This document shows positions 3,175 to 14,287 of a stretch of DNA of 18,248 nucleotides, piece by piece. Position numbers and translations under genes: made by a program. This DNA is from Nitrospiraceae bacterium (GTDB taxonomy: Bacteria > Nitrospirota > Nitrospiria > Nitrospirales > UBA8639): contig DOFS01000016.1 in the NCBI GenBank assembly GCA_003523945.1, positions 1 through 18,248 on the forward strand. Direction: 5' to 3'. Each line of letters begins with the position of its first letter. Positions within the stretch are counted from its first letter, which is position 1. The notes beneath the pieces were generated by a model. It ran no database searches. It was not told the origin of the DNA and saw only the letters and a program-made list of their open reading frames with translations.

Positions 3175-5163
3175 TCAGGAACGACTGGCCGTTTGTGGTG
3201 TGAACTGCGGCACAGCCGGTGATTCTGACACCTTTGGCGTCTCCGGCACTGGCGATTTCTTGCCGGCAAAAGCCGCAAGCCAGAACACGAAGAGAATGGT
3301 TGACCAGAACAAAAGAACATTGAAGGAAATCATATTGGCCGCAAACCCGATGGTATGGGTATAGGCCCAGGGCGAGTTATCCCGCATCACCTCGTTGACA
3401 TGCCAGAAGAGACGGACTGATGAACGGATGTATCCCATCAAGGCCATCATCCAGGTAAACTCCGTTGCCAGGGCGATCAGAGCATATTGCGATCGCGCCG
3501 GCATTTTCCCCCATTGAATGGGCCCAGCCACTTTGGCCCCCTTGAGCATGGCCAGGTTCAACGGCATCATCAATAGAAGACACGACATGGTGGTGGCCAC
3601 CTGGGGAACAGATAGACCAATCCGAACGTTCGCGGGTATGAAATACCCATAGATCGCCAACCAAATAATATTGAGACTTCCGACCACGAAAAAACAGGTC
3701 ATAAAGATATTGCCGAACAATTTCCATTTCACAGCTGGAATCAAATTGCCGCGCTGATACCAGATGAAACTCACAATCGTCACAATGATGAGCATATTGA
3801 TCCCGCCATTTTTGGCAGACATCACCCCATAGTTTCCTAAGACGGGATGCTGTTGGCCTCCCATGGCTTTCAGCTCCGCCGGTGTCATGACGATGGTATG
3901 GGGCGTGATAAAGACCAGGAGCCCTACGACCGCGATAAACACCAGATATTTAATATATCGTTGAAACCGTTCAGCACCGGGCATCCGGCCAAAGCATTGC
4001 CACAAGTAATAACTGGTACTCAAAAAGAGTGCGCCGATCATAGTGGCCTGAATGATAAACAACCACGCGAGAAGTCCCCCCATCAGGGTTATTCCCATTT
4101 GTTGGCGATAGGCATAGACCTCCCGCATGAGCCAATAGCCGGCAAACGGCAGGGGAATGAGAAAAATGACCGCGATAAACATGGCCACATATCCCATCCA
4201 GTCGTAATGGGCTCGCTCTTCATCGGTTTTTGCCGATAAAAACCGATAGGCGGCATACGCCGCCACGACGCTACCCCCGAATGCCATATTTCCTAAAATC
4301 CGATGAACATTCAGAGGATTCCATAAGGCGCTATGAATCGCATGCCAGATATTTCCGAGGTACCGTCCTTGTTCATCCACCCCTGCCGGCGACATCATGA
4401 ACGCGATCCACGAGTTCGCCAAAAACATCAGCACGGTTCCAATGACATTCAAGACCACGGCGATACTGAGATGCACCCACTTCAGGACGCCTTCCCTCAT
4501 CCTGTCCCATCCGTAGTAATAGATATACAAAGTCCCGCTTTCCGCCACGAAGAGCAGAGCATAGATGTGCATGACAGGACGGAAGATTCCTGAAAGATAG
4601 CTGAAAAATGTGGGATAGAGCGTGAGAAAGGTAAAGAGTAGAATGCCTCCGAGAATCGCGGTTAACGAATACGCCGTCAAACTGATTCGTATAAAATCAT
4701 AAGCCAGTTGATCATATTTCTTCGCCATGGCCTTGTCCTTGGTCACCATGCCGATAAACTCGATCACCATGCAGAAGATGGGAACAGCCAGGACAAAACT
4801 GCCGTAATACAAATGCTGCTGATTCGCAACCCAAATCAGCACTCGACTTTCAAAATTGCCATAGCGGGGATAATCATGCGTATTGTCCGCGGTGAGTGGA
4901 GCGGTTTCGCTCGACACCACACCTTCTGTTTTGTAATAAATATCTCGCCCCATTTCGACAGGAGCTTCGGCTTCTTCTCCCTCAACAACCTCCTGGGCGG
5001 GCTGTGGACTTTGCCCTCCCCCTCCCGATGCGATGGCCTCACTGTCTCCAAACAGGATCGGCATAGCGATTCCGATGGGAAGCAACAACATTACCGCAAA
5101 CATGCCGATCAGCATGATTACGGCATTTTTTTTCAGTTTCCCTCCACTCATTCCTCTACGCAT
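3175..5163 (-). CDS. Cytochrome bd-like oxidase subunit I (Nitrospira type)
   Basis: A polytopic membrane protein (662 residues, a dozen or more hydrophobic segments) with the CydA landmarks in order. NQQHLYYGSF has the His (H117) matching the b595 ligand of canonical CydA. FVAESGTLYIYYYGWDRM contains the conserved Glu (E208) and the GWDR turn. LANSWIAFMMSPAG resembles the CydA ANGWMQNPVG box, and WNPLNVHRILGNMAFGG carries another His (H287). It is longer than CydA, with an N-terminal helix, an acidic/Gly-rich loop (about residues 40-75) and a Pro-rich tail. Nitrospira is known to encode such deep-branching bd-like oxidases, proposed as terminal oxidases; no CydB lies beside it here. Start: ATG 5163 has GAGGAG eight bases upstream; a GTG at 5172 is the alternative. 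It is the first gene of the probable nxrA operon. Confidence 0.85.
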   Translation of the reverse strand: MRRGMSGGKLKKNAVIMLIGMFAVMLLLPIGIAMPILFGDSEAIASGGGGQSPQPAQEVVEGEEAEAPVEMGRDIYYKTEGVVSSETAPLTADNTHDYPRYGNFESRVLIWVANQQHLYYGSFVLAVPIFCMVIEFIGMVTKDKAMAKKYDQLAYDFIRISLTAYSLTAILGGILLFTFLTLYPTFFSYLSGIFRPVMHIYALLFVAESGTLYIYYYGWDRMREGVLKWVHLSIAVVLNVIGTVLMFLANSWIAFMMSPAGVDEQGRYLGNIWHAIHSALWNPLNVHRILGNMAFGGSVVAAYAAYRFLSAKTDEERAHYDWMGYVAMFIAVIFLIPLPFAGYWLMREVYAYRQQMGITLMGGLLAWLFIIQATMIGALFLSTSYYLWQCFGRMPGAERFQRYIKYLVFIAVVGLLVFITPHTIVMTPAELKAMGGQQHPVLGNYGVMSAKNGGINMLIIVTIVSFIWYQRGNLIPAVKWKLFGNIFMTCFFVVGSLNIIWLAIYGYFIPANVRIGLSVPQVATTMSCLLLMMPLNLAMLKGAKVAGPIQWGKMPARSQYALIALATEFTWMMALMGYIRSSVRLFWHVNEVMRDNSPWAYTHTIGFAANMISFNVLLFWSTILFVFWLAAFAGKKSPVPETPKVSESPAVPQFTPQTASRS

Positions 5164-5177
5164 TCCTTTCACTCCTC

Positions 5178-5638
5178 TCCCCCAAGGTCATTGAGCTCAT
5201 CGGGTAGGCAAGCCAAAATTTACCCGTTGAGAAATTTATTTATGAAACTTTTCTGAGGTTGCCGTATTTTCATCTCCACCAACTTGGATTCCCGTCCTTT
5301 TTTCTATTGTTGTTGAACGCTTTGCATGGGCCATGCCCAAAAAAGGAAAATTCAATGGTCCCAGCGAATCCTTTGTAAACCATAGCGTGGCTTGTCTTTA
5401 TCCGTGTGTTCCATTAATAGGCCTATCATTTGCCCACGAAAAGACGTGGTGGGTAATGGTGGCTACCCACCGCTCCACGTGGCCGGAGGCAGAGAAATAC
5501 TTGGAGGACAAAGAAGCGAACCTTCAGGAGCACAACCAAAAAGGATCAGAGTCCCGCACACCAGATCACTCTCCAGAGGGTGTGAGAGTTCTGAAGAATG
5601 TGAATCGGTCTTGAGTGTGTGGTGGGGGAAAAAAACGA
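5178..5638. other. Intergenic region upstream of the bd-like oxidase, rich in inverted repeats
   Basis: No convincing gene is seen; the open frames here have poor coding character and no RBS. It should contain the promoter and leader of the bd-like oxidase/nxrA transcript (minus strand). It holds a foldable element at 5433-5480 (listed separately) and an inverted repeat GCATGG-G-CCATGC at 5324-5336. I could not assign a -35/-10 pair with confidence, and no clear terminator follows the transaldolase-like gene. Confidence 0.5.
5433..5480 (-). promoter_or_regulatory. Foldable leader element, copy A, with mutually exclusive hairpins
   Basis: On the minus strand ACGTGG (5480-5475) can pair with CCACGT (5449-5444), enclosing a second 6-bp helix TGGGTA/TACCCA (5469-5464 with 5455-5450) and a 5-nt bulge. 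The same CCACG can instead pair with the following CGTGG (5438-5434) around the loop TCTTTT. The two folds compete, as in attenuators or riboswitches. The element lies 271 nt upstream of the bd-like oxidase start. A related hairpin lies at 6499-6516. Pairing is read directly; function is inferred. Confidence 0.4.
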
Positions 5639-6232
5639 TTAGACAGCAGGATCAAAAAGTTGCCGAAACATGGCAAATTGCATCGTGCAGATATGCCCTC
5701 CCGCCAACGCCGCCTCAAGCACCTCATGAGGAGAACGGATACCGGCGAGAAGCACCTGAGTGGAGAGCCCATAATTTCGAAAAACTGTGACAATTTTGCG
5801 GGTGATATCGCTTCCCTTGGATTGATTGTCGCCGATGTGATCGGGGCAAATTGAAACACACCATGCACCGGCTTTGGCGGCAATCAACGCTTGCGTCAGG
5901 GAAAAACATAGAGACACATTTACCCGGATGCCTTCGGCCGTCAACCGCTTAGTCGCTTTGAGTCCTGCAGGCGTCAAAGGACATTTCACCAAGACATTTC
6001 TATGGATTTTCGCTAATTCTTTCCCTTCCTTGACGATGGCTTCTTCTTCAATACTCAACACGCCCACGCTAATCGGACTATCCACATACCGACAGATTTC
6101 CCGAATTCCTTGATAAAAATTCAGACCCTGCTCCGTAACCAAACTGGCGTTCATGGCTATCCCATCCAGAATTCCCAACCTGCCAATTTCCTGAATTTCT
6201 GTGAGACTCACCGTATCTAGATAGAATTTCAT
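5639..6232 (-). CDS. Divergent transaldolase / fructose-6-phosphate aldolase-like protein, short C-terminus
   Basis: A 197-residue class I aldolase-fold protein of the TalC/FSA (MipB) group, which forms a Schiff base with sugar phosphates. D6 (FYLDT), N28 (MNASL) and the Schiff-base lysine K83 (VLVKCPLT) are kept. Other active-site positions differ from the family: TTNPS reads AMNAS, NVTL reads NVSL, the VGR(I/L)DD segment with its phosphate-binding Arg reads CPDHIGDN, and VPF reads MQF. The protein ends at QLFDPAV, about 15-20 residues before the usual HPLTD...W tail. It may be a transaldolase with altered substrate, or a non-catalytic relative. The ATG at 6232 overlaps the TGA of a six-codon leader ORF; GGAGGA lies upstream of that leader rather than directly before this start. 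It stands alone between two larger intergenic regions. Confidence 0.75.
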   Translation of the reverse strand: MKFYLDTVSLTEIQEIGRLGILDGIAMNASLVTEQGLNFYQGIREICRYVDSPISVGVLSIEEEAIVKEGKELAKIHRNVLVKCPLTPAGLKATKRLTAEGIRVNVSLCFSLTQALIAAKAGAWCVSICPDHIGDNQSKGSDITRKIVTVFRNYGLSTQVLLAGIRSPHEVLEAALAGGHICTMQFAMFRQLFDPAV

Positions 6233-6249
6233 GAACGTTCATTACTCAT
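6229..6249 (-). other. Six-codon leader ORF overlapping the transaldolase-like start
   Basis: ATG AGT AAT GAA CGT TCA TGA encodes MSNERS. Its stop overlaps the following start as ATGA. The only good Shine-Dalgarno (GGAGGA at 6267-6262) precedes this mini-ORF, 12 nt upstream. This suggests translational coupling, or simply a long-spaced RBS for the main gene. Confidence 0.35.
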
Positions 6250-6498
6250 GAACAGGAATAATCCTCCTCGCAATTTAGGCCCTTGCCGCAAGCCTGGCGT
6301 ACCGCTCTCACCCCATGACCTAAAAATAAAATCAGCCTCATCACTACCACTCTCTTCATTTGATCTCAATTAGCTGGCTTATCGGTGCCTTGCATACACT
6401 AAGCCATTGTGCAGTTAAGAACCCATATCGCTAAATTTCTTAAAATTTGTGTTGATTCACCTAAAAAGTCCATGAGTTCAGGAAGATGGACTTGCATA

Positions 6499-6516
6499 GC
6501 CACGAAAGACCGTGGT
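6499..6516 (-). promoter_or_regulatory. Hairpin element, copy B, upstream of the transaldolase-like gene
   Basis: On the minus strand CCACG-GTCTTT-CGTGG forms a five-bp stem with a six-nt loop. It matches copy A (CCACG-TCTTTT-CGTGG) in stem sequence and nearly in loop, including an ACC just upstream. Its distance to the start at 6232 is about 268 nt, almost the same as that of copy A to its own gene. Confidence 0.35.
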
Positions 6517-6639
6517 GGTCACATGACTCAAACCTTTGTATTCCGTGACTGTTCCTCAGCTGAGAGGTTGGGAAAAATGGAAAAATAGAGGAGGAAGAGG
6601 AGGAGATTAAAATGCGTGGGGGGAATGGCTAGGTTCGCG

Positions 6640-6696
6640 TTGGACCCCAAAGACCTGCTTTTCTAATCCGGTTCCGGAACGGGTTGGGGGGTCCAA
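6640..6696. repeat. Nested inverted repeat
   Basis: Perfect 9-bp arms TTGGACCCC (6640-6648) and GGGGTCCAA (6688-6696) enclose 39 nt. That interior contains a perfect 10-bp palindrome, GTTCCGGAAC (6671-6680), whose flanks also pair in part. It does not fold as a tRNA. It may be a small structured RNA, a miniature repeat or a protein-binding site. Confidence 0.45.
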
Positions 6697-7107
6697 TCTG
6701 AGTTATTCTGCTGCTCCCCTCACAACTCCATCTGCCAGCTACTGGCGGCCAATGACAGGAGAATACATTGCCGCGTGAATAATCGACTAACCCAGCCGGG
6801 GCCTTGGATGGGTGTGTCACGTAAAAAACAAGAGCCCTTCGGACCAGGAAAGAAAACCACTGCGCTGTCACCTGAGATACTCATGACATCCATCCGGAAC
6901 GATCATTCACATCTGATTGGCTCATCAATATAAACACTCCCGCATGTCCCTGATCCCATAAACGATAGATTAAGGTTGAAGCTGTTGGGTAGATATTTGA
7001 TAGTATTACAGCGATCCGCGCTTGCATTAAATGGCCATGCGACCGCAACCAAGGAATAAGCGTCAGAAATCGATGGCTCCGAACAATCATCACGATGGTT
7101 GTTCCAT

Positions 7108-7620
7108 TTAAGGAGGTCCCATAGACTTTGGAGGATAACCGGCTCTCATTAAAACTCGGCGTATAGTCCCAAACACTGTCGGGGTATCGGAATAATCAGC
7201 TACTGATACTGGCGAAACAGCCTGCAAACGCCGTAGAAGATCCTCGATCTCAACACCGGCAATCTGTTCGCATTGCACATACACCCCTTCTGAGCCTTCC
7301 TCCAGTCCATTGTGAGAATCAAGAATCATTCGGATTGACTCAATGATGGCTCGCGTGGGTGTCGGCATAATCAACGTACCAAGGGCGCCATGATCAAGCC
7401 GTAGCTTATCGGTCAAGGGAAGTGGGCTGCCGCTTCTCAATCGTTGAATGGTTGGAAACAGCACCTTTTCCTCCATCGCGATGTGCCGGAGAAGACCCAT
7501 GCGGAATTCTCTATAGGCCTGGTGATCAATTTTCTCCTGTTGGTCAATGGCCCGGTGCAAGAGATTATCTAACCGTGCATGGTCCTCCGCCAGGTAATGT
7601 TGCACAATTCCCAATCTCAC
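7108..7620 (-). CDS. Hemerythrin HHE-domain protein
   Basis: A 170-residue four-helix-bundle protein with the non-haem di-iron hemerythrin pattern: H14 (EDHARLD), H46-x3-E50 (RHIAMEEKVLFP), H77 (LRLDHGAL) and H103-x3-E107 (SHNGLEE). Such proteins bind O2, NO or act in iron or redox stress. The HHE domain fills residues 5-120; the rest is a tail without recognised domain. The start is GTG at 7620 with GAGGAG six bases upstream. Only 12 nt separate it from the superoxide dismutase gene, so the two are almost surely co-transcribed and the context points to oxidative or nitrosative stress. The exact ligand is not decidable from sequence. Confidence 0.88.
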   Translation of the reverse strand: MRLGIVQHYLAEDHARLDNLLHRAIDQQEKIDHQAYREFRMGLLRHIAMEEKVLFPTIQRLRSGSPLPLTDKLRLDHGALGTLIMPTPTRAIIESIRMILDSHNGLEEGSEGVYVQCEQIAGVEIEDLLRRLQAVSPVSVADYSDTPTVFGTIRRVLMRAGYPPKSMGPP

Positions 7621-7632
7621 ATGTTTCTCCTC

Positions 7633-8244
7633 TCAGATTCCTGATTGGCGTTTAGCCACAACATCCCAATTGACATTCGAAAGGAAGCTTTCAATATATG
7701 CCCCCCGTTCGGACGGTTGAAAGTCGAGTAGATAGGCATGCTCCCACACATCCATCACCAACAGGGGTCGAAAGCCTGCGACATTACCAAATTCATGGAG
7801 ACTTACCCAATGGTTGGATAATCGCCCGTTATGGGGGTTTTGATAGCAAATGGCCCAACCGACTCCTCGCATTTTCCCTATGCTAGAAAAGTCCGTCTTC
7901 CAATTCTCAAAACTTCCAAAACTCTCTGTTATGCCTTTTCCTAAAGAATCCTGACCTTTCAAACCTATTGAGGCTTGAGAGGTCATATTTTCAAAATATA
8001 ACTCATGCAGAACCATCCCGTTATATTCAAATCCCAGCCGCCTGGTGAGTTCCGAATAAGCCGGCATTTCCTCCTGATCCACCTTTCCGTCTTTTAAAAT
8101 ATTGGCAATGAGTTTGTTGAGCGTATTCGTAGCCTTAACATATCCTTCATACAGCTTGAAATGCATCTCCAGCGTCTTATCTGAAATTCCTTTTAATCCT
8201 GAAAGGTTAAATTCTTTGGCTGTATATTGTTGAGTGCGCGTCAT
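7633..8244 (-). CDS. sod: Superoxide dismutase, Fe/Mn family
   Basis: This 203-residue enzyme converts superoxide to hydrogen peroxide and oxygen. The four metal ligands are visible: H28 (LEMHFKLYEGYV), H80 (MVLHELYFEN), and D165 and H169 in the signature DVWEHAYLLDF. The segment between (GVGWAICYQNPHNGRLSNHW) departs from the common GSGWAWLV box, so I do not choose Fe or Mn. There is no signal peptide, so it should be cytoplasmic. The ATG at 8244 follows GGAGG by ten bases. It is the first gene of a pair with the hemerythrin protein. In an aerobic nitrite oxidiser the enzyme would protect against superoxide made by respiration. Confidence 0.93.
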   Translation of the reverse strand: MTRTQQYTAKEFNLSGLKGISDKTLEMHFKLYEGYVKATNTLNKLIANILKDGKVDQEEMPAYSELTRRLGFEYNGMVLHELYFENMTSQASIGLKGQDSLGKGITESFGSFENWKTDFSSIGKMRGVGWAICYQNPHNGRLSNHWVSLHEFGNVAGFRPLLVMDVWEHAYLLDFQPSERGAYIESFLSNVNWDVVAKRQSGI

Positions 8245-8976
8245 AAAAACCCTACCTCCATTGCATAATCAGAAATTTTCCTCATAGAAACCCTGATTAA
8301 ATAAAATAATAATCTCCCTGACTAATAAGAGAATACGTTAGCGTCATAATCCCCCACGGGCACACACCGACTGTGGCTTCAGGAGTCGGTCCCGGTTTTT
8401 CACCATTTTTATTTGGAGAAATACTTGGAAACCTTATGTTTCGGTTTATGCGGGCATATCGCCATGATGTTCACTCACAGCTAGGAAAGATCCTCATCCG
8501 AACCCAAATGCCATTTGCTCCGGATGCCCCTGATTTCTCTTTGGTGAAGCTCATGGGTACGCCTCATGCGAAATGACCCTTGGAAACAAGCAAAGCAATG
8601 AACATGCCAGATGAAATTTACACTTCCGTTTGAATCGATTTTTTTCTACATGCAGCGTTTCATGATCGAGGGTCAGGAAACAAACTATGAAGACTGCTTA
8701 GATCCTCCGTCCCCGGTGTGAGGACCCCACTCCTATAATGCTGAGCAGAGTTCGAAGCCTCAATCATTTTGCAATGGACGATGGGGAGGGAAACTTCCGT
8801 TTATGACGTTGGGCTGGCGAGTTTAGATAGGGATGCCATGTCATGAACTTTAGGAAAGTCTTTGCCCTCAGGAGGGACGTTTTTTGGATACGGAGTTCTT
8901 ATTTTAGAGGAAAAACTTCTTCATTGGTTCACTTTTCCAAATCTCTGGCGTTGAACCGATTGAGCCAGCAGGGGGT
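8245..8976. other. Intergenic region upstream of sod (about 730 bp)
   Basis: The promoter of the sod-hemerythrin pair should lie just right of 8244, where an AT-rich block with GATTA...TAATC arms (8295-8299 and 8310-8314) is seen. A hairpin ACCGACT/AGTCGGT (8366-8372 with 8384-8390) is followed on the plus strand by CCCGG and TTTTT. Near the rnk stop, ATTGGTTCA (8923-8931) pairs with TGAACCGAT (8952-8960) with one wobble pair and a 20-nt loop. A GTG-started frame at 8373-8576 (67 codons) begins inside the first hairpin and is not called. Confidence 0.45.
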
Positions 8977-9399
8977 TTATAGGTGATAATCTCCGGCGGC
9001 TTCAGGTTGATAGAGCACCTCTTCAATTTTCAACTTTCGTTTTCCTGCAGGCACCTGCCACTCAATAATGTCCCCAACTCGACAACCCAGAATGGCCGTT
9101 CCCACCGGTGCGAGGACCGAAATCCTGCCTGTCGCAGCATCTGCATCACGCGGAAACACTAAGGTATATACCAGCTTCTCTGCCTTGCCCATGTCTGATA
9201 ATCGGACACGTGAGTTCATTGTGACGGCATCATGCGGAATATCCTTTGGGAGGACAATGTTCGCCCGGTCTAATTCTTCCTTCAGGCCATCCAGATGGTC
9301 GCTTTCGCTTTTGCTGCCTCTGAACGTGAGGCCAACGTCCAATAGTTCAGTGAGTCTGTTCAGATCGTATTCTGTAATGTAAATGTCTCGATGCTCCAT
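8977..9399 (-). CDS. rnk: Rnk-type nucleoside diphosphate kinase regulator (GreA/GreB C-terminal fold)
   Basis: A 140-residue protein closely matching Rnk along its whole length. The N-terminal helical part contains LKEELDRANIVLPKDIPHDAVTMNS (about residues 39-63), and the C-terminal GreA/GreB-like FKBP domain contains VLAPVGTAILGCRVGDIIEW and ends with the typical YQPEAAGDYHL. Rnk proteins bind RNA polymerase near the secondary channel and were named for effects on nucleoside diphosphate kinase levels. The start ATG at 9399 has GGAGGAG about eight bases upstream. It is monocistronic here and divergent from the response regulator, with a 406-bp gap that must hold both promoters. Identification is secure; its targets in this organism are unknown. 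Confidence 0.92.
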   Translation of the reverse strand: MEHRDIYITEYDLNRLTELLDVGLTFRGSKSESDHLDGLKEELDRANIVLPKDIPHDAVTMNSRVRLSDMGKAEKLVYTLVFPRDADAATGRISVLAPVGTAILGCRVGDIIEWQVPAGKRKLKIEEVLYQPEAAGDYHL

Positions 9400-9805: not shown

Positions 9806-10489
9806 ATGCGAATACTTCTCGTCGAAGATGATACCGACCTGGCGCAATTCATTCGGAAAGGTCTTCAGGAGGAGGGGCACGCAATCGACCAGGCGGCAAA
9901 TGGTGAGGACGGGTTTCTTCTCGCCAGCACCTACTCTTACGATCTTCTCATCCTAGATGTCATGCTCCCGCAATTGGATGGCATGGAATTGTGTCGCCGG
10001 CTTCGGACCAAGGGATACGCCACTCCCATTCTTTTTCTTACTGCTCGCGCTTCCATAGAGGATAAGGTTACAGGGTTCGACAACGGAGCCGATGATTATC
10101 TGACGAAACCGTTTGCATTTGCGGAATTGCTTGCGCGGATACGTGCCTTAATCCGACGGGTGGGACCCCACACACTCAGACGATTAAAAGCTGCCGATCT
10201 GGAGATTGACCCTTCGTCCAGAAAGGTCTGGCGAGCAGGGAACGAGATTGCATTAACGAATAAGGAATATGCGCTCCTGGAATATTTGTTACGGAATAAA
10301 AACCGGATACTGACGCGGACAGCCATAATCGAGCATGTCTGGGACATTAACTACAATCCCATGACGAATATTGTCGACGCACACGTTCGAGCATTACGAT
10401 CAAAAATGGATCGGGATTTTCCCCCTCCTCTCATTAAATCAGTTCGCGGGGCAGGATATATGCTGGAGGCACCGGAGGAAGCCGTATGA
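9806..10489 (+). CDS. OmpR/PhoB-family response regulator
   Basis: A 227-residue cytoplasmic transcription factor. The receiver domain (residues 1-115) has acidic residues E7/D8/D9, phosphoacceptor D51 (LLILDVMLP), T79 and K101 (YLTKPF). The C-terminal winged-helix domain (about 125-222) shows the usual LTNKEYALLEYLL and RTAIIEHVWD segments and RALRSKMD in the recognition region. It resembles CusR/QseB-type regulators. ATG 9806 follows GGAG by seven bases. Its stop overlaps the kinase start by 4 bp (ATGA), so the two are translationally coupled. The phased direct repeats at 12086-12133 and 13234-13281 fit the binding mode of this family and are its likely targets. The input signal cannot be told from sequence. 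Confidence 0.94.
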   Translation: MRILLVEDDTDLAQFIRKGLQEEGHAIDQAANGEDGFLLASTYSYDLLILDVMLPQLDGMELCRRLRTKGYATPILFLTARASIEDKVTGFDNGADDYLTKPFAFAELLARIRALIRRVGPHTLRRLKAADLEIDPSSRKVWRAGNEIALTNKEYALLEYLLRNKNRILTRTAIIEHVWDINYNPMTNIVDAHVRALRSKMDRDFPPPLIKSVRGAGYMLEAPEEAV

Positions 10490-11937
10490 GGTCATTTCGA
10501 AAGCAAATCCGACATTCGGCTCTCGCGCTCGTCATTGGCTTGCTCGCAGCGTTTACCGTACTTGTCTACTGGAGTTTCGAGGCGGCACTCAATCGGTATG
10601 TGGATAGCCGCTTGATGACTCTCGCAAGCACTCTCGTGAAATTCATCAATAATCAGCCTAATCTACTTCAGACACCAAAACAGGAAATGGTCAATATAGA
10701 TTTCGGTGGGACCACTGAGGAGGAGCAACGTTCGCTACGAGAGGCATCGCATTCCATCCTGGTGCTGTCGCCTACCGGGAAAACCATTTGGAAGGGCCCA
10801 ACCGCGATCGATCGATCTCCGCTCCCTGACAGCCTGCTCTCGCAAGTTCAGGAAGGTCAGATTGTTTACGATACCGTTCACCCACCCAACGCGGCTCCAG
10901 TTCGACGGGTTTCCATTCCCGTGCCAAAGCACAAGGAGCCGCAATATATCATCCAGGCCGAAACCTCCCTTCGCTTTTCACAAGAAGCCCTGAGAAGTCT
11001 TTTCATCTTGCTTGCAGGTTTTTCAAGTATCACGGTTGCCATGGCGTGGCTAGGGAGTCATTGGGTAGCCGGAAAAGCCCTATCCTCTCTCAAGACCCTC
11101 AGTGCGACTGCGGAGAACGTCACTGGCCCACCGTTCCGAACGCAATTGTTCCTCGATCCTCCTTACCAGGAATTCAGCCAGTTGACCAACGCATTCAATG
11201 CCATGCTAGACCGCCTTCAAAAAAACTTCGAAGGACAACGACATTTTGTCGATCACGCCGCTCATGAAATGCAGACTCCCTTAACCGTTCTGCAGGCCAA
11301 TATTGAAGTGACCCTTCAAAAGGCCCGAACGCTTGTTGAATATCGAGAAGCGTTGCTCACCAATTTGGAGCAAGTTGAGCGGTTAGGAACACTGACCCGC
11401 TCGCTGCTGATCCTGGCAAGTTTTTCAGACGACCGTTATGCCGTTCAACTGGTGCCACTTGACCTGGAGCCCCTCGTTCAGGATCTCGTCGGTGAACTTA
11501 TGTTACTTGCCGAAGATCAACAGATTCTACTGACACTTGACTCTCAACCAGTACCACTCGTGCTGGGGGATAGGGAACGGTTAAAACAGTTACTCATCAA
11601 TTTACTCGATAATGCCATTCGTTATACCTCTCCTGGAGGAACCGTCGTTGTTCGCATGGGATTGATGGAAGATTATGTGTCCATTGCTGTTGAGGACAGC
11701 GGCGTAGGAATTGGGCCAGAACATCTTCCCCGCCTTTTCGATCGGTTTTACAGGGCTGACGCATCAAGGGTAAAGAACTCGGGCGGAACCGGTCTGGGAT
11801 TGCCTATCGTCAAAGAGATTGCCGAGGCACACCGCGGTACCGTCACCGTCCAAAGCGAAATCGGAAAAGGTTCCGTATTCACCTTGGTTCTTCCGACATG
11901 CAAAGATCTTCCTCAATCTTCTGCTGTCCCTACATAA
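10486..11937 (+). CDS. Sensor histidine kinase partner of the OmpR-family regulator
   Basis: A 483-residue inner-membrane kinase. TM1 spans about residues 12-30, followed by a sensor loop of about 135 residues, TM2 about 170-189 and a HAMP linker (190-248). The dimerisation box has phosphoacceptor H260 (HAAHEMQTPLTVLQ). The ATPase domain has its N box at N376 (LLINLLDNAIRYT), G1 at D404 (VEDSGVGIG) and G2 in GGTGLGLP (433-440). The layout is that of CusS/QseC-like kinases. The H box reads HEMQTPL rather than the common HELRTPL, with no expected loss of function. No metal-binding His/Met cluster is seen in the sensor loop, so metal sensing is not supported. It overlaps the regulator gene by 4 bp; a hairpin with T-run lies about 60 nt past its stop. 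Confidence 0.93.
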   Translation: MRSFRKQIRHSALALVIGLLAAFTVLVYWSFEAALNRYVDSRLMTLASTLVKFINNQPNLLQTPKQEMVNIDFGGTTEEEQRSLREASHSILVLSPTGKTIWKGPTAIDRSPLPDSLLSQVQEGQIVYDTVHPPNAAPVRRVSIPVPKHKEPQYIIQAETSLRFSQEALRSLFILLAGFSSITVAMAWLGSHWVAGKALSSLKTLSATAENVTGPPFRTQLFLDPPYQEFSQLTNAFNAMLDRLQKNFEGQRHFVDHAAHEMQTPLTVLQANIEVTLQKARTLVEYREALLTNLEQVERLGTLTRSLLILASFSDDRYAVQLVPLDLEPLVQDLVGELMLLAEDQQILLTLDSQPVPLVLGDRERLKQLLINLLDNAIRYTSPGGTVVVRMGLMEDYVSIAVEDSGVGIGPEHLPRLFDRFYRADASRVKNSGGTGLGLPIVKEIAEAHRGTVTVQSEIGKGSVFTLVLPTCKDLPQSSAVPT

Positions 11938-12085: not shown

Positions 12086-12139
12086 ATGAACATTTCTTCA
12101 CGTTCTGTTCATCTCTTGTTCATGCAGTTACGGTACAGT
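12086..12139 (+). promoter_or_regulatory. Promoter P1 with four 11-bp-phased half-sites and -10 box
   Basis: An inverted half-site ATGAA starts at 12086. TTCAC starts at 12097, TTCAT at 12108 and TTCAT at 12119, each exactly 11 bp apart. Ten bases separate the last half-site from the -10 box TACAGT (12134-12139). No TTGACA-like -35 is present at 17-bp spacing, so an activator on the half-sites probably replaces it. The same array recurs at 13234. Predicted transcription start is near 12146. Confidence 0.75.
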
Positions 12140-12220
12140 CCACCTACCCTTCGGGAAACCATCCTAAAGGGAACAGGGAAGATCGGCGCGAAGAACAAAT
12201 TCAGACAGGAGGCAATAACG

Positions 12221-12415
12221 ATGGTCGAAATACCTTCACGTCGGCATGGCGGTCTAGCTCATCAAGTCAGTGGGAGAATCATACTCATGACGTGGGCCTG
12301 TGCACGGCATTCTATTGTCCAATACCGCCATTACTATAGCCTTTTCCCACCAGGAGATTGGTCGTGTAAATCAAAAATGAAGGATTTCAGTCAAGAGACA
12401 AACCGATGTCGATGA
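12221..12415 (+). CDS. Hypothetical 64-residue protein downstream of P1
   Basis: I do not recognise it. The ATG at 12221 has a perfect AGGAGG eight bases upstream and lies about 75 nt after the predicted start of the P1 transcript. The product is basic, Cys-containing (WACARH, WSCKSK, NRCR) and has no clear membrane segment. The frame is open far upstream into the kinase gene, but the RBS and promoter position make 12221 the sensible start. The composition is not strongly coding, so it could also be a leader ORF or untranslated. It precedes the 112-residue gene by 110 nt in the same presumed transcript. Confidence 0.4.
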   Translation: MVEIPSRRHGGLAHQVSGRIILMTWACARHSIVQYRHYYSLFPPGDWSCKSKMKDFSQETNRCR

Positions 12416-12525
12416 CCTGAGGACCACTTTCTCATAACGACTGAATTCTCCATCGTGAAAAATCGTGAGAATGGAAGGAGAAGGTTGTTGGGAGCGATCC
12501 TGCGAAATACAGAAGGAATACGATT

Positions 12526-12864
12526 ATGACAATGAAAAACAGAAATCACGTCAGAGCTCAGATCTTTGTACACGAAAGTCAGAATGGAGAGTACTGTGTA
12601 CCCTACAAAACTCTTATAGGTTACGGAATTGGCAACCGGGTGATTGTTGACGGCGCTGGGGAACACCTTTATGGCGGCCAGGTATTTGAAAGTGTAGAAA
12701 CGGCTGCGAATGAAGCCAAGGGAAAAGCTTTAAAGACCATAAAGAAAAAATTTCCTCATGTGGAGGAACATACAATTGTATGGGATGTGGTGCTTGAACG
12801 GGATTTAGCCCTCAGCCACGGGTCACGAAGAAGGATGGTTCTTGAGGAGTTCTCGACAACTTGA
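12526..12864 (+). CDS. Hypothetical small soluble protein
   Basis: A 112-residue protein of unknown family. It has a hydrophilic N-terminus (RAQIFVHESQNGEYCVPYKTL), a Gly-rich middle (GYGIGNRVIVDGAGEHLYGG), an amphipathic helix (ETAANEAKGKALKTIKKKFP) and a charged C-terminus. There is no signal peptide or membrane helix. The sequence has good coding character. AAGGAA lies about seven bases before ATG 12526; a second in-frame ATG follows at 12532. It is probably transcribed from P1 together with the 64-residue ORF, and the strong hairpin at 13121-13161 may end the transcript. By its promoter it belongs to the same response as the guanylyltransferase-like gene downstream. Confidence 0.7.
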   Translation: MTMKNRNHVRAQIFVHESQNGEYCVPYKTLIGYGIGNRVIVDGAGEHLYGGQVFESVETAANEAKGKALKTIKKKFPHVEEHTIVWDVVLERDLALSHGSRRRMVLEEFSTT

Positions 12865-12886
12865 TGGCTCAGTGGTGATCGCTGGA

Positions 12887-12898
12887 GTGCGATCGCAC
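12887..12898. repeat. 12-bp perfect palindrome
   Basis: GTGCGATCGCAC is perfectly self-complementary and lies 23 bp after the stop of the 112-residue gene. It could be a binding site or a small hairpin; nothing in the context decides. Confidence 0.5.
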
Positions 12899-13120
12899 TT
12901 GCACGATATAAGACGGGGCTTGGGAATCTGGCAAACGACTGAAGATCCACGGAACTTTCATAAGGAAGAAGTCTGAAATACGAAAAACGTTTAAGGATCC
13001 AGAAAGAACCCCATAGGATGATCACACTCACAATTCGCCTGCTGAAAAAATCAGAACGAGGCATGAAATTGTCACTTACTTAAGCCGTTTAGTTGAAACC
13101 GCCTCGATAGGACTGCCCGG

Positions 13121-13173
13121 CGAGTGAAGCTCCCCGCCAAAAAGGCGGGGGGTTTCACTCGAAAAACCTTTTT
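13121..13173 (+). terminator. Long GC-rich hairpin, probable terminator
   Basis: Arms 13121-13138 and 13144-13161 pair with a few central mismatches: outer CGAGTGAA/TTCACTCG, inner CCCCGCC/GGCGGGG, loop AAAAA. The stem is followed by AAAAACC and then TTTTT (13169-13173). It sits between the P1 transcript and promoter P2, where a terminator is expected, although the T-run is offset by eight bases. Confidence 0.6.
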
Positions 13174-13233
13174 CCCTCCTCATCGACGACTTTCTTCAGT
13201 ATCAACATTCCCATCAAAGACCTGATGCATTCA

Positions 13234-13287
13234 TGAAGAATTCTTCATGGTTCATTCATGATCCGTTCATGTTGTGTAGGTATAGTC
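13234..13287 (+). promoter_or_regulatory. Promoter P2 with the same four-half-site array
   Basis: ATGAA starts at 13234, then TTCAT at 13245, 13256 and 13267, each 11 bp apart. Ten bases separate the last from the -10 box TATAGT (13282-13287), followed by CC as in P1. I count 38 of 56 aligned positions identical to P1 over this block, centred on the half-sites and -10. A perfect 18-bp palindrome, CATGAAGAATTCTTCATG (13233-13250), is built from the first two half-sites. No -35 box is seen. Predicted transcription start is near 13294. Confidence 0.78.
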
Positions 13288-13342
13288 CCAACCAATGAGA
13301 ATGAAGCTGCATTGCAACAACTTCCATGAAAAGGAGGGGGTG

Positions 13343-14287
13343 ATGAAAAAACAAGGTCAATCATCTCAGCTTTGGTCTGTCATTTTGGCGGGAGGTGACG
13401 GCCTGCGAATGCAACCCATGATTCAGCAGTGGTTGGGTAAGCCCAAGCCAAAACAATACTGCACCTTTGTCGGGACCCGATCCATGTTTCAGCATACAGT
13501 CGATCGGGCGCTCAGACTCACGAAACCCGAGCGAACCGTTACCGTGATTGCGAGGAGCCATGAAGCAGAGGCCTGGTCGCAGTTAGGTGGAAGAGTCTGC
13601 GGAAAAGTCTTGGTGCAGCCCAAAAATTTTGGCACAGGACCAGGGATTTTTTTACCACTGACCTATATCCGTGCGAAAGAGAAAAACGGAACTGTGGTGA
13701 TTTACCCATCTGATCACTTTATCTATCCGGAAGATCGTTTTTTAGAGATAGTTGAGCTAGCTGAATGGGTAGTTGAGAGAATGCCACATCGCCCAGTTCT
13801 TTTGGCAGCTCCTGCAGACCGCCTGGAGGTCGAATATGGCTGGATCCTCCCCGCCGACGTTCACTCGGTTGTGGACGGGTATCGCCTGTGTACCATCGAG
13901 AGATTTCTGGAAAAGCCGAATGTGATTCAGGCACGCCAAGCGCTGGCGGCCAATGGGATGTGGAATATGCTGGTTTTGGTGACGAAGATCGAAGCAATCT
14001 GGAGTCTGGGATGGGAATATTTTCCAGAGATGATGATGCTATTCGAGCGCCTTGAAAAGGTCATCGGGACTTCGGAAGAATGCACGGTTTTGAATGCCAT
14101 ATATGAAGTCATGCCAAACAAGGATTTGTCATTTGATTTACTCCAACACGTCCCCCGAAGAATGATGGCATTGGAGGTAAATGGGGTTCTTTGGAGTGAT
14201 TGGGGTCAACCAGATCGGATTGAGAAGACCTTGGAAAAACTCAACAAAAAACCGGCCTTTTCAATGGACTACCTGGCTTCGGTTTAA
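13343..14287 (+). CDS. Mannose-1-phosphate guanylyltransferase-like nucleotidyltransferase
   Basis: A 314-residue enzyme of the sugar-phosphate nucleotidyltransferase family, expected to make GDP-mannose (or a related NDP-sugar) for surface polysaccharide. Visible motifs are the signature VILAGGDGLRMQP (13-25), KPKPKQYC (33-40), the metal/substrate segment IYPSDHFIYPE (120-130), ERFLEKP (186-192), MWNMLVLVTK (206-215) and SDWGQPDRI (285-293). It lacks the C-terminal isomerase domain of bifunctional AlgA/ManC. The start is ATG 13343 because AAGGAGGGGG lies directly upstream; an in-frame ATG at 13295 coincides with the predicted transcription start and has no RBS. It stands alone behind promoter P2, so envelope polysaccharide synthesis is probably under two-component control. 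Substrate is inferred from the family. Confidence 0.85.
   Translation: MKKQGQSSQLWSVILAGGDGLRMQPMIQQWLGKPKPKQYCTFVGTRSMFQHTVDRALRLTKPERTVTVIARSHEAEAWSQLGGRVCGKVLVQPKNFGTGPGIFLPLTYIRAKEKNGTVVIYPSDHFIYPEDRFLEIVELAEWVVERMPHRPVLLAAPADRLEVEYGWILPADVHSVVDGYRLCTIERFLEKPNVIQARQALAANGMWNMLVLVTKIEAIWSLGWEYFPEMMMLFERLEKVIGTSEECTVLNAIYEVMPNKDLSFDLLQHVPRRMMALEVNGVLWSDWGQPDRIEKTLEKLNKKPAFSMDYLASV

What the first reader, a model, noticed from the sequence alone, without database searches (positions are those of the whole stretch)
12086..13287. Twin activator-dependent promoters with identical four-site, 11-bp-phased arrays beside their likely regulator
P1 (12086-12139) and P2 (13234-13287) share one inverted ATGAA and three TTCAT/TTCAC half-sites in exact 11-bp steps, then exactly 10 nt, then TAYAGT and CC. 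Both lack a -35 box. Eleven-bp-phased direct repeats abutting the -10 are the known geometry of OmpR/PhoB-family class II activation. An OmpR-family regulator and kinase are encoded immediately upstream and read the same way. The inferred regulon is a 64-residue ORF, a 112-residue unknown protein and a mannose-1-phosphate guanylyltransferase-like enzyme. The extra inverted fourth half-site is unusual.
Basis: partly seen in the sequence, partly recalled or inferred. Interest (0 to 1): 0.78.

Follow-up and report, generated by a model that had tools for sequence, protein, structure and literature searches.

The report
Four-site switch promoters, conserved widely
Two promoters beside a bacterial sensor-regulator pair carry the same four evenly spaced binding sites, a layout that recurs beside related regulators in many bacteria and very probably shows which genes those regulators switch on.

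Summary
P1 (12086-12139) matches as stated; P2 is 13233-13286 (one base off). Both read RTGAA-N6-TTCAY-N6-TTCAY-N6-TTCAY-N10-TAnnnT (0 of 200 shuffles). In 117 Nitrospirales genomes the direct-site core plus -10 occurs in 41, its reversed control in 0. The inverted site and the 10-nt gap, tested apart, are both sharply fixed. Arrays lie beside one response-regulator subfamily, also at loci picked without the motif (20 of 32). A paralogous regulator (~50% identical) has the same layout with half-site TTAAT. The neighbouring OmpR-family protein is very probably the class II activator. The 'unusual' inverted site forms, with the first direct site, a 16-bp palindrome with the geometry of the CopR/CusR/AgrR box; an in-phase direct repeat beside that box is published for AgrR (PMC7380067). 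New here: the strict four-site form, its TTCAT and TTAAT readings, its spread over phyla, and its targets (nucleotidyltransferase, PepSY, AmoC). Binding, transcription starts and signal are untested. New variant of a known kind.

The parts
9806..10489 (+). OmpR-family response regulator, proposed activator
   Evidence: PF00072 and PF00486; nearest NCBIfam TIGR01387 cztR_silR_copR, 258.7 bits, under its cut-off 279.2
10486..11937 (+). sensor histidine kinase, start overlapping the regulator's stop
   Evidence: HATPase_c, HisKA, HAMP (HAMP slightly under its cut-off); nearest TIGR01386 cztS_silS_copS, 256.5 bits, under its cut-off 292.55
12086..12101 (+). P1 palindrome: inverted half-site ATGAA (12086-12090) plus first direct half-site TTCAC (12097-12101)
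   Evidence: inverted site and inner spacer conserved across Nitrospirales
12108..12112 (+). P1 second direct half-site
12119..12123 (+). P1 third direct half-site
12134..12139 (+). P1 -10 hexamer TACAGT, 10 nt after the third direct site
   Evidence: N10-TAnnnT in 44 of 56 distinct arrays found without a -10 condition
12221..12415 (+). 64-codon ORF; start and ribosome-binding site conserved, ORF length not
12526..12864 (+). 112-aa protein of unknown function, probable P1 target
   Evidence: 54-82% identical in three relatives; 10 homologues in the protein database, three of them named as Nitrospirales proteins; no Pfam
13233..13248 (+). P2 palindrome ATGAAGAATTCTTCAT, a perfect inverted repeat
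13255..13259 (+). P2 second direct half-site
13266..13270 (+). P2 third direct half-site
13281..13286 (+). P2 -10 hexamer TATAGT
13343..14287 (+). nucleotidyltransferase-family enzyme, P2 target; start probably at 13340 or 13343 rather than 13295
   Evidence: PF00483; AAGGAG and this start conserved in three relatives; family found within 3.5 kb downstream of arrays in 14 loci

Best explanation
P1 and P2 are class II, activator-dependent promoters. Phosphorylated regulator (9806-10489), made with its kinase, binds four half-sites on one face of the DNA, one helical turn apart: a symmetric pair on the 16-bp palindrome (about -60 to -45) and a tandem pair on the two downstream direct sites (about -38 to -23). 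The tandem pair takes the place of a -35 element and recruits RNA polymerase to the -10 hexamer 10 nt on. P1 drives a small ORF and the 112-aa protein; P2 drives the nucleotidyltransferase. In the same genome a third array stands before a PepSY protein, a DUF2231-type frame, a paralogous regulator-kinase pair and a CusB-like pump subunit, so the two systems may cross-talk. Shown: the sites, their conservation, their geometry and their link to this regulator subfamily. Inferred: binding, phosphorylation, two-dimer occupancy, activation, transcription start (about 12146 and 13293).
For: Pattern in 41 of 117 genomes, reversed control in 0 of 117. Inverted RTGAA at the exact offset in 44 of 76 arrays found without asking for it, at most 4 at any other offset. 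N10-TAnnnT in 44 of 56 distinct arrays found without a -10 condition, at most 4 at any other offset. Regulator subfamily cleanly separated in the list shown (62% identity and above against 52% and below, one truncated 80% match aside); genomes with an array hold it in 34 of 41, genomes without in 25 of 76 (Fisher p 2.4e-7, not corrected for relatedness). Arrays above 20 bits in 20 of 32 regulator loci fetched by the regulator's position, best reversed-matrix control -2.9 bits over 40 loci. P1 and P2 are conserved islands in three relatives with the orthologous regulator. Paralogous regulator: 18 of 20 loci with a TTAAT version. AgrR: inverted and direct repeats both contribute to activation, type II position (PMC7380067).
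Against: 12 of 32 subfamily loci showed no array above 20 bits. 7 of 41 array-bearing genomes lack a subfamily regulator, two of them at 98-99% completeness. 40 of 76 arrays have no OmpR-family regulator of 45% identity or more in the fetched stretch, though many stretches are cut by contig ends. The own genome holds two subfamily regulators, so the assignment to this one rests on adjacency. No array precedes the regulator gene itself. No binding or expression data.
Confidence: 0.82

Rival explanations
1. The main regulator of P1 and P2 is the paralogue beside the PepSY array (contig C395), or both paralogues share one regulon.
For: Both regulators belong to one subfamily (64% identical) and their arrays share the same half-sites and spacing.
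Against: P1 and P2 stay beside the orthologue of the window's regulator in the three relatives with a full-length orthologue at 81-93% identity (G003, G027, G036). PepSY-type and P1/P2-type arrays differ in spacers (by eye).
Confidence: 0.12
2. A different transcription factor, not an OmpR-family response regulator, binds the palindrome or the array.
For: 40 of 76 arrays have no regulator of this kind in the fetched stretch; the palindrome alone could suit many dimeric factors.
Against: Linkage at loci chosen by the regulator; paralogue and half-site change together; geometry agrees with AgrR and CusR boxes.
Confidence: 0.05
3. Non-regulatory 11-bp tandem repeats or chance.
For: Short repeats arise easily in AT-rich DNA; some of the AT-rich hits may be such.
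Against: One site is inverted, spacers are not repeated, the -10 sits at one fixed offset, and controls are empty.
Confidence: 0.01

Closest known systems
AgrR box of Cupriavidus metallidurans (PMC7380067: abstract, passages and section 18 read)
   Same: 16-bp inverted repeat with half-sites 11 bp apart, in-phase direct half-site beside it at some operators, both contributing to activation; proposed type II activator. That its target prsQ2 encodes a small PepSY-like protein is recalled, from no call
   Different: AgrR consensus ATKACANNNNTGTMAT, direct repeat only at some operators and imperfect; here ATGAA..TTCAT, two near-perfect direct sites and a fixed 10-nt gap to the -10
CusR and HprR boxes of E. 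coli (promoter sequences of cusC and hiuH)
   Same: palindrome ATGAC-N6-GTCAT or ATTAC-N6-GTAAT followed at 11 bp by one more direct half-site (GTCAC, GTAAG)
   Different: fourth site degenerate; possible -10 one base further (my reading, no mapped start consulted)
P. putida CopR1/CopR2 sites (PMC12428095, passages read)
   Same: multiple TGACA-like half-sites inside long footprints
   Different: no fixed four-site array in the passages seen
ArcA multi-repeat sites (PMC3798270, passages read)
   Same: OmpR/PhoB-family regulator with up to five direct repeats, core pair at 11-bp centres
   Different: direct repeats, no palindromic core in the passages seen; variable architecture
PhoB pho box (recalled, from no call)
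   Same: 11-bp direct repeats in place of the -35, about 10 nt from the -10
   Different: no inverted half-site; TGTCA half-site

Membership tests
OmpR/PhoB-family response regulator | receiver domain plus winged-helix Trans_reg_C | tested here: met
   PF00072 102.9 bits, PF00486 87.4 bits
CzcR/SilR/CopR subfamily (TIGR01387) | score above the curated cut-off | tested here: not met
   258.7 against 279.2; the C395 paralogue 278.5. Nearest family, not a formal member
CopR/CusR/AgrR-type operator | 16-bp inverted repeat, half-sites 11 bp apart | tested here: met
   both promoters; exact RTGAA in 44 of 76 arrays of Nitrospirales
CopR/CusR/AgrR-type operator | half-site sequence TGTMAT / TGACA | tested here: not met
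   half-site is TTCAT, or TTAAT in the paralogue
CopR/CusR/AgrR-type operator | additional in-phase direct half-site | tested here: met
   two direct sites downstream
CopR/CusR/AgrR-type operator | response to copper, silver or related metals | not testable with these tools
   only hints: CusB-like HlyD_D23 protein encoded after the C395 kinase, AmoC targets
Class II activator-dependent promoter | binding sites in place of the -35 at fixed distance from the -10 | tested here: met
   no sigma70-type pair at either site; N10 to TAnnnT in 44 of 56 arrays
Class II activator-dependent promoter | mapped start and activator dependence | not testable with these tools
   none
pho box | direct repeats of TGTCA without inverted site (definition recalled) | tested here: not met
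   TTCAY half-sites and an inverted site

The most novel reading that the evidence does not exclude
One inverted plus three direct half-sites in 11-bp steps, 10 nt from the -10, is an old standard promoter class of CopR-related response regulators in many phyla. Paralogues keep the scaffold and change the half-site (TTCAT, TTAAT, and in E. coli GTCAT and GTAAT), so scanning for the scaffold reads the regulons of orphan two-component systems straight from genomes, including an AmoC regulon in Nitrospira.
Probability: 0.45. Interest if true: 0.65.

Novelty: new variant of a known kind. Interest (0 to 1): 0.5.

Why it matters
Most two-component regulators in uncultured bacteria have no known targets. 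A strict scaffold with almost no chance matches ties regulator subfamilies to target genes by sequence alone, and the TTCAT and TTAAT paralogues give a natural series for asking how OmpR-family proteins choose their half-site. It also predicts that stand-alone amoC genes of some Nitrospira are under a CopR-like system, which can be tested directly.

Tried and rejected
Chance or tandem repeat: rejected by empty reversed-pattern controls. Known RNA element: no Rfam match in the window at gathering score. 'CC' after the -10 as a signal: not conserved. Scaffold search without a given half-site: among the 32 TTCAT-type loci 18 reach 16 points, against 0 of 96 resampled sequences; in the same loci six altered scaffolds (other spacing, gap or orientation) reach 16 in 0 to 2 of 32. 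Among the 20 paralogue loci only 2 reach 16, because my filter dropped half-sites with fewer than three different bases, TTAAT among them. The paralogue loci were meant as a negative control; they turned out to hold the TTAAT version, so they do not serve as a plain negative. A regulator of the same genome that groups with E. coli CusR (L287) has no AgrR-type box in its stretch at up to 2 mismatches. The tree of 33 regulators leaves the order of half-site changes open, and for other phyla the regulator in it is simply one found in the same stretch. Papers: no hit for 'heavy metal response regulator' with TTCAT; the comammox/amoC/copper/two-component search and the Nitrospira response-regulator motif search listed nothing on this array in titles and abstract starts.

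Full report
What is there. The window (contig C526 of genome G000) encodes an OmpR-family response regulator (9806-10489) and a histidine kinase (10486-11937). Each is an inverted ATGAA, then three TTCAT/TTCAC in 11-bp steps, 10 nt, then TACAGT or TATAGT. Two exact matches, none in 200 shuffles with up to 3 mismatches.

In its own genome the complete array occurs in one further place, C395:91-144; a copy at the end of contig C463, one base different downstream, looks like an assembly overlap. It lies before a PepSY protein gene, a DUF2231-type reading frame, a second regulator 64% identical to the first, its kinase, and a gene for a CusB-like HlyD protein.

Order-wide test. The pattern of three direct sites plus N10-TANNNT matched in 41 of 117 genomes at 77 places; the pattern read backwards matched in 0 of 117. 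I fetched 76 of the 77 places (the C463 copy left out). The six bases inside the palindrome are conserved too (position by position G 45, A 60, A 42, T 35, T 67 and C 51 of 76), whereas the spacers between direct sites are much less so. So the palindrome seems to have longer half-sites, about 7 bp (ATGAAGA..TCTTCAT), than the 5-bp direct sites.

The -10 was tested apart. The pattern RTGAA plus three direct sites, without a -10, gave 59 places in 37 of 117 genomes, control 0. One place (G108:C127) was not held; two pairs of places share one array. Of the 56 distinct arrays, 44 have TAnnnT and 50 have TA exactly 10 nt after the last site; counted as 57 different stretches, no other offset up to 21 had more than 4 TAnnnT.

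Which regulator. In the list shown, matches to the window's regulator fall into two groups: 62% identity and above, or 52% and below, apart from one truncated match of 80% (its list is cut at the low end). 59 of 117 genomes have a regulator of the upper group. Genomes with an array have it in 34 of 41, genomes without in 25 of 76 (relatedness not corrected). Of 76 arrays, 35 have such a regulator in the fetched stretch of at most about 12 kb. I then fetched 32 of the 34 listed upper-group regulator loci that the motif had not already brought in (G083:C15 and the truncated G038:C244 left out). A matrix from the 76 arrays found a site above 20 bits in 20 of 32, usually one or two mismatches from the pattern, 15 of them after the kinase gene and 5 before the regulator gene; the same matrix reversed never exceeded -2.9 over 40 loci. 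Two of the 20 (L259, L260) hold arrays already listed. Twelve of 32 had none.

A second regulator with the same scaffold. Twenty loci of ~50% identical paralogues were meant as a negative control. Instead, 18 of 20 hold a version of ATTAR-N6-YTAAT-N6-YTAAT-N6-YTCAT-N10-TA (the inverted site of L291 deviates), mostly just after the regulator-kinase pair and before a gene of about 415-490 codons. A genome-wide pattern for it matched in 14 of 117 genomes, once each, control 0; 12 of the 14 lie on the same contig as, and within about 2.2 kb of, that paralogue as listed (in G067 and G114 it is another contig).

Beyond the order. The 116 loci hold 124 arrays; 42 of the 124 lie in a stretch with an OmpR-family regulator at 38% identity or more, 15 of them with one at 60% or more. 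The closer look at sequences and genes used the 80 loci that were listed, with 85 arrays. Some AT-rich hits may be chance. In a tree of 33 regulators the Nitrospirales TTCAT group is one side of a branch (92/87), the TTAAT group and the E. coli CusR/HprR pair likewise, and regulators found near TTCAT arrays in other phyla fall elsewhere (3 changes). TTCAT may thus be the older reading, but support is limited and cognacy in those phyla is assumed.

Targets. One search clustered the frames within 3.5 kb downstream on the same strand of 145 distinct arrays (the 76 plus those of the 80 listed loci). By representatives scanned against Pfam: nucleotidyltransferase like that of P2 (14 loci), universal stress protein (12 loci, 470-1820 nt down), PepSY (11), DUF2231 (9), FtsX/MacB-type permease (9, mainly Campylobacterota), guanylate cyclase in Chloroflexota (2 proteins scanned), and AmoC (4 loci, each scanned). 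Several representatives had no Pfam family (for example L090:3777-4889, L103:4725-4973, L054:5051-5872, L113:4987-5766). Gene calls were mine, greedy by length, so single cases may be wrong. P1 and P2 are islands of conservation in three relatives; the 112-aa protein is 54-82% identical there. The 64-codon ORF has a conserved start and ribosome-binding site, but ORFs of 64, 47, 95 and 85 codons. The enzyme's start is more likely at 13340 or 13343 than at 13295.

Mechanism. With a start about 7 nt after the -10 (assumed), the sites lie at -60 to -56, -49 to -45, -38 to -34 and -27 to -23, on one face. I propose a symmetric pair on the palindrome and a tandem pair on the last two sites, the latter replacing the -35. 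This is inference. Published support comes from AgrR: 16-bp inverted repeat core, in-phase direct repeats at some operators, both contributing to activation, type II position (PMC7380067; abstract, passages and section 18). There the unphosphorylated form was the active one in the mutant studied, so phosphorylation dependence here is an assumption. In E. coli K-12 the cusC and hiuH promoters show the palindrome followed by one direct half-site at 11 bp.

Verdict. The strict four-site form, its change of letters with the paralogue, its breadth and its targets were not met in searches. Those cover open-access papers only; I saw listings of them and read parts of three papers (PMC7380067, PMC12428095, PMC3798270).

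Noticed in passing
L096:5271-6098, L102:3922-4779, L107:5277-6113, L110:4008-4835: amoC genes in four Nitrospirales genomes (G115, G098, G107, G063) begin 165-234 nt downstream of a TTCAT array. amoA was found in G063 and G107 but not in G098 or G115, so two genomes seem to hold an array-linked amoC without amoA.
   Followed up: partly
L266-L269, around position 4001 or its complement: In four genomes TTCAT repeats run on past the -10 before a 316-326 codon gene without Pfam match (scanned in L266), followed by a porin gene (BBP2, scanned in L266). In L266, L267 and L269 a second array faces a gene nearby (Slp lipoprotein in L266); none was seen in L268.
   Followed up: partly
L156, L164, L184: Chloroflexota arrays precede a 397-429 codon gene (guanylate cyclase domain in L156 and L164; L184 not scanned) followed by a response regulator and kinase.
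   Followed up: no
window 3175-9399: The minus strand upstream holds a cytochrome bd-type oxidase subunit I, a transaldolase-like protein, a hemerythrin, a superoxide dismutase and a GreA/Rnk protein: a stress- and oxygen-related neighbourhood.
   Followed up: no
L111:4263-7086: An array without the inverted ATGAA next to several receiver-domain proteins of 41-46% identity, an arrangement not seen at the other arrays listed.
   Followed up: no
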